From Antedon mediterranea (taxonomy: Eukaryota; Echinodermata; Crinoidea; Comatulida; Antedonidae): 64,000 nucleotides of DNA. Numbering within the stretch: the first letter of the stretch is position 1; each line of letters opens with the position of its first letter. Under the pieces are notes generated by a model that worked only from the letters and a program-made list of their open reading frames with translations, made no database searches and was not told where the DNA came from. The stretch spans positions 6,544,312 to 6,608,311 of the forward strand of contig NC_092675.1 of the NCBI RefSeq assembly GCF_964355755.1, read 5' to 3'. The position numbers were made by a program, and so were the translations under genes. Positions 33,378 to 36,400 of the stretch are shown here, one piece after another.

Positions 33378-33499
33378 CTATTCTTGTTTGCTCTCTTCGG
33401 TGGTTGATGACTCCGGGTCTTTTCGTGGCGGCATCCGCTCATTCAGTTTATCAAGTCCTTTGGCTTCTTCGAATCCACTGATCTTGTGAGAATTAATTG
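33378..33499 (-). CDS. PPP3C: Calcineurin A terminal exon, downstream copy (C-terminus 2)
   Basis: Acceptor CAACAG, 122 nt to TAG. Reads [20 protein letters not shown] then RMPPR, the same motif as the upstream copy, with a different tail, [14 protein letters not shown] (acidic, Ser/Thr-rich). Same phase as the upstream copy, so either can follow the exon at 35798-35895. Confidence 0.92.
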
Positions 33500-36400
33500 C
33501 TGTTGACGAGGGAAGTATTAGCAGAGATATAACATTGTAATACAGAAATGAATGCATACACCTATATCCATTCACCTCCTGCAAAACCTGACCTAAATTG
33601 TTGTTGACATGATTTCATATAAGTTTTAACCTAAGGGTTCTTGTCCATGCTGTTATGTGGTATACCACTGGCACCGGGGTGCCTGGGGGGCATGCGTTCA
33701 TTCATCTTGTCAAGACCCTTGGCTTCTTCAAAGCCACTAATCTTCTGAGAGCTGATAGCTGTTGAAGAGATAAAAAGTAGTGTAGGATAAAACACGAGAA
33801 TGCCACATGCAGATAGTAATCAAAATAAACAATGCGTGAATTGTTATCATAGTAAGAATAAAAAAAAGTGATTTTAAAATTAGAAAAGTGATGAGTACCC
33901 ACAAGGCCTGCCACCACAAAATGAGAGAGACGGCATATATTTAATAAGATTGAACTTCTTTCATAGCTTTGTGTTACTTTATGTAACCTAAGGGTTTCAT
34001 ATTATGTTCACAGGGGTCACAACAAGGAAAAAATGAAATATGCTTTTATTTTTAGCATTTAGTTATATTTTTAAAAGCCGATATTTCATTTCTCTAAGTT
34101 GGGACCACTCTGAAAATAAGGGGGGCACTTTATATGAAGTTCAATACACATTACTCTCATTTTCTGATAGCACATTCAATTATTTTGTGTGAATCTAAAT
34201 TAATAACCAATGCATCAATTTAAAAAGAAATATCAACCAAAAATGTTGACCTTAAAATGTCTACAAAAAGTGCATAAAAAAGTGAAATATAAAGTTTGTA
34301 GAAATATCATAAAAGTAGAAAAAAAATTAATATGTATTATTTAGATAAAAAATATATTAACGAGTCAAGAAGATAACTTTAATAATTCAAATTTAAATAT
34401 TAATAAAATGATGCAATGAGTTTAACACATTCACTGCCAGTGGTAAACAGGGTGGTTTAGATGCCCTCCTACCGATCCCAGGGCTCAAATCAGGCACCAA
34501 TACTTTTTGCCTGACAAAGAACAAAGCCACTCTTAAAGACTTGTATCAAGACTTTGCTTATGTAGAGCCTTTGTATATTCTCGTCACGTAAACTGGGTTG
34601 CCACCAAAGACAGTGAAATTAATCACATAATCTGCTTAAATTGAGATTAAATAATAAAGGGGTAAAAACTAGTGTGCCCGAGTTCTGAATGCAGAAAGAA
34701 AAAAAATTGTGACGTAAAAAAAATTCTCAAATGTATTTGTTTCGCACCATTAATTTTGTCAGTGAATATGGCAGAGAATATGTTAAAAGGAAAAAAAAGA
34801 CACCACCAATTAAAAGTTAGATGAATGAAGCAAACCATAGCAATTAAGAACAGCTTACAACTCTCTTGGATTTAGTATACCACAATTGAGATAGACTGAC
34901 CTTATATGGTAATTGGTGTTTAACTCTACTATACTTAGTAAAACAGTATAATATTTAATAGAACAATTTTCTTAGAAAATGATAAAAAGGAATTGATGGA
35001 GAAATGAAACTGGGAATATTCTGAGCGAGAGATTAACAATTGATTGAATTGATTGATTGAAATTTATATTTATACTGGGTAACCAACCTCTTCAGTCAAA
35101 GACTGGTCTCCCAGAGGGTCCAGTTGGTGATCAGTGGCTGTGATGTACTAATACACCGGGGTACCCCCCTACTCTTCTCGAAAGATGTATTAGGTTCTTT
35201 AAAGTGCACACGAGCTAGATGTGTACACTGGACCTACGGTTTATAGTCCTTATCCGAGAAGACTCGTTCTACCACCAGAACCATGGAGTGAGTGAGCCTC
35301 GAACCCCTGCTAATGTTATGGCTACGTAATTACGGTTCCACTGTCTTAACCGCTCGGCCACTCACTCATAAGGTTGAATATAAGATGAGTTTTATCTATC
35401 TCATAAATTTGAGGAATCTTAAAATGAATATAGACAAGCACCTTTAGGTTCTTAGAAATAATAGGTGTTATTATTAGTTTAAACTGTGCTTAAGTATTGT
35501 TTAAGTTTTTGCCTATTCAAAATATTATAAATTATGTGTAGAATATTTAATGAATTTACTGTTTCATATTGACTCTATATTCATATTTAATACGATTATC
35601 CAACTTGGATATTAAACAAATATATATAACATATTTTTTATCATTATATAAATAAAGTTCCCTTAATTTATTAGAATAAAAATTGAATTTCAATAAGCAT
35701 CCCCAATTAGTTCCACTCCACCTCTCCCATGTTTTCATAACGACACCTAACTTACCAATAGTGAAATATTTTACATGTTGATTTACAACATACTTACCAC
35801 TTAGTAGAGTAGCTTTTCCCCCAGATAGCGCCCCTGTAGGCAGCATACCACTGGGTGTCAGCCCCTTGAGAACAAGAACGGTTTCACTTTCCTCTCTGAA
35901 AGGAGATAAATAAACCAAATGAGGAATTTCACACACACAATTTTTTTAAATGACATTTCAGTTTTGAACAATTAAACACATTCATATACATAGTTGACTA
36001 AATATTTTAACAATAATGGTTAATGCTATAAAATTCAGGAAGACTTTTTCTCAGTTAGGTAGTTTAACCTAATGTAATAACATGTCTACTGACTCCCTAG
36101 AAGGTGAACAAAGATTGTGGATAAACGGTGGATAAATTTTGCAATAGCATGAAAATAAAACTCTGAAGTTGAATAAAAAATACCAGAAACGTAAAATTCA
36201 AGTTATATTACCTATATTTAGTCATCTGATAACATTTTTTACCACACCGTTTATTTTTATAGTTTTTAAAAATGCATGAATAGAGATTTTACTGTGTAAT
36301 TTAAACTATCCCCCCCATACTGATAAGAAAGTGCTTATTTTCAAGTGTAACGCAAATAAAATCCAAAAAAATATGAAACATAGGGGAAACTATAGGTCGA

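What the first reader, a model, noticed from the sequence alone, without database searches (positions are those of the whole stretch)
33378..33758. Duplicated, alternative last exons of calcineurin A, each with a full autoinhibitory motif
Two exons 130 bp apart share the same acceptor phase, encode the same [19 protein letters not shown] core, and each runs to its own stop with a different tail ([11 protein letters not shown]... versus [14 protein letters not shown]). Third-base differences are many while the core protein is kept, which suggests an old duplication held by selection. Switching would change the C-terminal tail without losing autoinhibition. Known vertebrate C-terminal variants of calcineurin A arise differently (for example intron retention in the beta gene that removes the motif).
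Basis: partly seen in the sequence, partly recalled or inferred. Interest (0 to 1): 0.85.

Follow-up and report, generated by a model that had tools for sequence, protein, structure and literature searches.

The report
Calcineurin gene with duplicated last exon
A calcineurin A gene carries two old, separately preserved copies of its last coding exon, each with the enzyme's self-blocking segment but with a different tail, so one gene can probably make two calcium-controlled phosphatases that differ almost only at their ends.

Summary
On the minus strand a calcineurin A gene (exons e2-e12 modelled, exon 1 not found) ends in two homologous coding exons: A (33758-33631) and B (33499-33378), 131 nt apart. 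Both have CAACAG acceptors, join e12 in phase 1, encode AI(S/N)S(Q/H)[13 protein letters not shown](M/L)NERMPPR, and have unrelated tails with their own stops. Over 26 codons there are 16 synonymous differences in 16.2 sites and 3 non-synonymous in 61.8. The duplication is old and both copies are constrained, so A is not a decaying relic. No second calcineurin A regulatory region was found in the genome. First, no usable poly(A) signal was seen between A and B, so A is more likely an upstream 3' splice site of one composite terminal exon, or a stop-bearing cassette, than an independent last exon. Second, the nearest precedent is C. elegans tax-6, with mutually exclusive homologous exons in the adjoining linker. 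No RNA or animal relatives could be examined, so use of both exons is inferred. I rate it a new variant of a known kind.

The parts
33631..33758 (-). Terminal coding exon A: phase-1 acceptor, 26-codon linker plus autoinhibitory core, tail [16 protein letters not shown], stop TAG
33378..33499 (-). Terminal coding exon B: phase-1 acceptor, homologous core, tail [14 protein letters not shown], stop TAG
33500..33630 (-). 131-nt spacer between A and B: intron of the B form, probable 3' UTR of the A form; none of 13 poly(A)-signal hexamers; donor-like sites GAG|GTGAAT (exon end 33576) and TAG|GTCAGG (exon end 33593)
33152..33157 (-). ATTAAA, best candidate poly(A) signal past both stops (no AATAAA within 1500 nt of B's acceptor)
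35798..35895 (-). Exon e12 (end of calmodulin-binding region and linker; region names recalled), donor CTAAGTG|gtaagt in phase 1, compatible with A and B
36518..36602 (-). Exon e11 (calmodulin-binding region, name recalled)
45387..45458 (-). Exon e10
52107..52232 (-). Exon e9 (start of calcineurin B-binding region, name recalled)
52736..52830 (-). Exon e8 (end of catalytic domain)
58040..58117 (-). Exon e7 (catalytic domain); exons e2-e6 lie beyond the window, in L001

Best explanation
A calcineurin A gene has an old tandem duplication of its terminal coding exon. The common donor at 35798 is joined either to the acceptor at 33758 or to the one at 33499. Each choice gives a full-length, calcium/calmodulin-controlled phosphatase with an intact autoinhibitory segment but a different C-terminal tail (16 residues, net charge 0, versus 14 residues, net charge -3). 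The A form is most likely made by using the upstream 3' splice site and reading on through the spacer and exon B as 3' UTR to a shared poly(A) site; the B form by skipping A to the downstream 3' splice site. Shown: anatomy, phase compatibility, constraint on the core of both copies, no second regulatory region found, no separate poly(A) hexamer for A. Inferred: that both are spliced, that the choice is regulated by cell type, and that the tails change localisation, phosphorylation or partner binding rather than autoinhibition.
For: Exons e2-e12 with GT-AG borders splice to either A or B as one open frame, 79.7% identical to human calcineurin A in both forms (372 of 467 and 374 of 469 aligned columns). 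16 synonymous differences in 16.2 sites versus 3 non-synonymous in 61.8 (Fisher P 6e-14 on rounded counts). In a neutral simulation started from B, with a quarter, a half or all of the core synonymous changes put on A, 12.9, 17.2 and 17.4 amino-acid changes are expected against 1 observed; one or none occurred in 1.15%, 0 of 2000 and 0 of 2000 runs. Both acceptors end CAACAG; B has a branch-point-like CTAAT about 19 nt upstream. A 125-residue C-terminal query found 5 matches in the genome, all five being exons of this gene. No poly(A) hexamer in the spacer; ATTAAA at 33157. C. elegans shows tissue-biased choice between homologous exons in the adjoining linker (PMC12503234).
Against: No transcript, junction read or animal relative was available. 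By a small model trained on the 11 other acceptors of the gene, both acceptors are weak (A -6.0, B -6.4; the 11 known, each left out in turn, range from -7.0 to 13.1, with one below A and B) and rank 53rd and 58th of 147 AGs between 35780 and 33000, so splice-site strength gives no support. Before A the yTnAy branch-point pattern is met only by TTTAT, 13 and 30 nt upstream. Synonymous differences are saturated, so no date can be given. Neither tail could be tested for constraint.
Confidence: 0.72

Rival explanations
1. Exon A is a stop-bearing cassette. It runs past its stop to a donor in the spacer (GAG|GTGAAT, exon end 33576, or TAG|GTCAGG, exon end 33593) and is joined to B, which then serves as 3' UTR. 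The protein is the same A form. With the first donor the stop lies 55 nt before a junction, near the recalled limit for nonsense-mediated decay, so A might partly serve to lower calcineurin dose; with the second it lies 38 nt before.
For: With recalled human donor frequencies the two sites score 3.7 and 1.8, within the range of the 11 known donors of the gene (-0.1 to 7.0); with a model from those 11 they score 4.2 and 5.4 (known, left out in turn: 3.7 to 11.8). Introns would be 76 and 93 nt.
Against: Between 0.8% and 1.7% of all GTs in the region score 3.7 or more, so one such site among 15 GTs is not remarkable. Constraint on A's protein argues that it is made, not only used to destroy the transcript.
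Confidence: 0.2
2. A is a cassette with a donor before its stop (33675 or 33666, both in phase), so that A and B are joined in frame and the protein carries two autoinhibitory segments in tandem.
For: Exons of 84 or 93 nt would keep the frame into B.
Against: The two donors score -2.7 and -2.6, below all 11 known donors of the gene (-0.1 to 7.0); by the gene's own model -1.0 and 0.2 against 3.7 to 11.8. Nine of the 15 GTs between the acceptors are in phase, so phase alone is weak evidence.
Confidence: 0.04
3. A is an unused relic of a duplication and only B is spliced.
For: No RNA evidence for A here; B is closer to the human protein (47.4 versus 40.8 bits, and the match runs two residues past PPR).
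Against: A keeps 20 of 21 core residues relative to B despite saturated synonymous sites, with an open frame and an AG acceptor in phase.
Confidence: 0.04

Closest known systems
C. elegans tax-6 mutually exclusive exons 13a and 13bc (PMC12503234: abstract, introduction part 1 and passages seen)
   Same: Calcineurin A gene with two tandem, highly similar exons used one at a time in the regulatory C-terminal part; autoinhibitory domain kept in both products; use differs between neurons and muscle.
   Different: There the exons encode linker LR2 and differ in its length, followed by the autoinhibitory domain in common; here the duplicated exon carries the autoinhibitory segment itself plus tail and stop, and the linker length is the same.
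Mammalian CnA-beta C-terminal variants (PMC3056713 and PMC12503234, passages and introduction part 1)
   Same: One calcineurin A gene with alternative C-termini.
   Different: Those arise by intron retention or other 3' exons and lack the canonical autoinhibitory domain (CnA-beta1 is said to have a different autoinhibiting segment); here both forms keep it.
Human PPP3CA exon 13 inclusion (LR2; PMC12503234)
   Same: Alternative splicing in the same linker.
   Different: A small cassette exon, not a duplicated terminal exon.
Tandem duplicated terminal exons in other genes, for example Drosophila pip, and PGRP-LC 3' variable regions (PMC9013439, passages)
   Same: Homologous tandem terminal exons or 3' regions chosen one at a time.
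   Different: Other genes; here no poly(A) hexamer for the upstream exon was found, and no unusual RNA structure.

Membership tests
Calcineurin A (PP2B catalytic subunit) | Metallophosphatase catalytic domain | tested here: met
   PF00149, E 6e-40 on the spliced B form (the A form was not scanned but shares that part)
Calcineurin A (PP2B catalytic subunit) | CnB-binding, calmodulin-binding and autoinhibitory parts in order | tested here: met
   Alignment to the human protein over residues 21-485/487 at 79.7% identity (part names recalled); C-terminal 75 residues of the A form match calcineurin chains in the PDB
Tandem duplicated exon pair | Two adjacent homologous exons, same phase, own splice site | tested here: met
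Tandem duplicated exon pair | Protein-level constraint on both copies | tested here: met
   for the 26-codon core; tails not testable
Mutually exclusive splicing | One and only one exon in each transcript, shown by RNA | not testable with these tools
   no transcript data held
Alternative last exons with separate 3' ends | A poly(A) signal for the upstream exon before the downstream one | tested here: not met
   Of 13 hexamers only AATGAA, inside A's coding part; a non-hexamer signal is not excluded

The most novel reading that the evidence does not exclude
An old, conserved splicing switch that duplicates the autoinhibitory exon itself, giving one animal lineage two calcineurins with equal calcium control but different tails, selected by competing 3' splice sites of one composite terminal exon, perhaps under an Rbfox-type factor (three GCATG in and before A, none in the spacer or in B's coding part). 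A bolder form, not excluded, adds a third product with two autoinhibitory segments in tandem.
Probability: 0.4. Interest if true: 0.6.

Novelty: new variant of a known kind. Interest (0 to 1): 0.45.

Why it matters
What the segment after the autoinhibitory domain of calcineurin does is, to my knowledge, little studied. A natural pair of forms that keeps autoinhibition and linker length and swaps mainly the tail would isolate it. It would also add another route to the reported hot spot of alternative splicing next to the autoinhibitory domain (PMC12503234). In the listings of 9 literature searches (8 with calcineurin among the terms, one on duplicated terminal exons) I saw no report of a duplicated autoinhibitory exon in calcineurin A. 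Two listings were capped (20 of 80, 20 of 151), only five papers were opened, the library lacks most subscription journals, and isoform records of sequence databases could not be searched.

Tried and rejected
Allelic or assembly duplicate, recent tandem duplication, gene conversion: rejected, synonymous sites are saturated. Second calcineurin A gene: one search gave 39 matches, 13 in this gene and 26 elsewhere (26-67% identity, catalytic region), which I take for other phosphatases of the same superfamily without having tested them; the C-terminal query found only this gene. Weak or withheld matches could be missed. Special RNA structure: 523 nt around the pair fold no better than shuffles (z 0.39, 64 of 100 shuffles at least as stable). 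Regulatory motifs (names recalled): of 10 patterns, GCATG (3, mean 0.36; 0.8% of windows; Markov P 0.025) and GAAGAA (2, mean 0.13; 1.3% of windows) stand out before correction for 10 tests. GAAGAA encodes the conserved EE and one GCATG lies in the core codons, so this is a lead only. Codon make-up: third-position G+C is 0.58 in A's core and 0.59 in its tail, 0.38 and 0.53 in B, 0.36 in the other exons; small numbers, unexplained. Relatives: viral and prokaryote contig collections gave none (49 and 52 pattern stretches, none confirmed), as expected; no animal collection was available. Taxon: COX1 family no match in G000, so no mitochondrial test; innexin 2 weak matches; molluscan hemocyanin domain none, but nothing rang in any control either; cellulose synthase none, with 3 of 14 controls ringing. 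None of this settles the phylum.

Full report
Setting. The window is C6:6544312-6608311 of an unnamed 354-Mb, 18-contig genome; its G+C content is 32%. I modelled exons e2 to e12 with GT-AG borders; exon 1 with the start codon was not found. The spliced B form has the metallophosphatase domain (PF00149, E 6e-40). The two forms are 79.7% identical to the human protein over human residues 21-485 (A) and 21-487 (B).

The pair. e12 ends CTACTAAGTG|gtaagt at 35798. Acceptor A (cttcaacag|CT, 33758) and acceptor B (cgtcaacag|CA, 33499) each complete an alanine codon. A reads [42 protein letters not shown]-stop; B reads [40 protein letters not shown]-stop. Of the 100 nt before each acceptor only the last 20 are clearly alike (14 of 20; the four bins before that 3 to 7 of 20). 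The C-terminal 75 residues of the A form match five distinct PDB sequences, all calcineurin catalytic chains or a fusion holding one, including 1aui. Against the human core, A agrees in 17 of 21 residues; B agrees in 19 of the 24 aligned.

Age and selection. Over 26 codons I count 16 synonymous differences in 16.2 sites and 3 non-synonymous in 61.8; over the 21-codon core, 13 in 12.8 and 1 in 50.2. Synonymous change is saturated, so no date can be given. A simulation started from B's core, with A+T-rich neutral mutation, gives 12.9, 17.2 and 17.4 expected amino-acid changes when a quarter, half or all of the synonymous changes are put on A's branch; one or none was seen in 1.15%, 0 of 2000 and 0 of 2000 runs. 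The observed number is 1. The core of A has thus been kept as protein code. The tails have no detectable similarity, and their own constraint cannot be tested without relatives.

How it would work. Of 13 poly(A)-signal hexamers, the stretch from A's acceptor to B's acceptor holds only AATGAA inside A's coding part. Further on there are GATAAA inside B (33452), AATAGA at B's stop (33382), and then ATTAAA at 33157, which I take as the best candidate; there is no AATAAA within 1500 nt of B's acceptor. The simplest reading is competition between two 3' splice sites of one composite terminal exon: the upstream one gives tail A, with the spacer and B as 3' UTR and no junction after the stop; the downstream one gives tail B. 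A cassette version with a donor after A's stop is possible (GAG|GTGAAT 3.7, TAG|GTCAGG 1.8; known donors -0.1 to 7.0) and would give the same protein. In-frame donors before the stop exist but score below all 11 known donors. Against easy splicing of either exon, a small model from 11 acceptors ranks A 53rd and B 58th of 147 AGs; such a model is crude, but it gives no support. The tails differ in charge (0 and -3) and in S/T-x-x-D/E matches, a recalled casein kinase 2-like pattern (0 and 3); an effect on phosphorylation or partner binding is a guess.

Comparison with what is known. PMC12503234 (abstract, introduction part 1 and passages seen) describes C. elegans tax-6 exons 13a and 13bc as mutually exclusive, very similar and tissue-biased, in the linker before the autoinhibitory domain, and reports splice variation of this linker in human, mouse, zebrafish and all nematodes examined. 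PMC3056713 (passages) describes mammalian CnA-beta intron-retaining forms without the autoinhibitory domain. PMC7151749 (passages) reports only one calcineurin A cDNA in an abalone. PMC9013439 (passages) mentions tandem duplicated terminal exons in other genes; PMC9741552 (term search) does not mention calcineurin. I saw no duplicated autoinhibitory exon in the listings of 9 searches, two of which were capped. The finding is therefore a new variant of a known kind, and the main step, use of both exons, remains to be shown.

Limits. No RNA, no animal genome annotation and no relatives could be examined. The best-candidate searches of G000 can miss weak or withheld matches.

Noticed in passing
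window 35075-35370 (minus strand), in the e12-A intron: A SINE-like element with a tRNA-like head (judged by eye; ARAGORN called no tRNA in the window): 39 other copies at 97-98% identity among the 40 scored of 2580 first-look candidates in the genome. A young, abundant repeat.
   Followed up: partly
window 22141-22260 (+): 5S rRNA match, full model length, 57.3 bits.
   Followed up: no
window 20698-22276 (minus strand): Two open frames (147 and 168 aa) with leucine-rich-repeat-like text by eye; no Pfam match at E 0.001.
   Followed up: partly
window 33810, 33695, 33650 (minus strand): Three GCATG words just before and inside exon A, none in the spacer or B's coding part (one more at 33345, past B's stop); 0.8% of equal-length windows have as many, before correction for 10 motifs.
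   Followed up: partly
G000 C10:4916006-4916407 and C10:4937165-4937557: Only two weak innexin-family matches were found in the genome (E 1.9e-6 and 1.5e-5).
   Followed up: no
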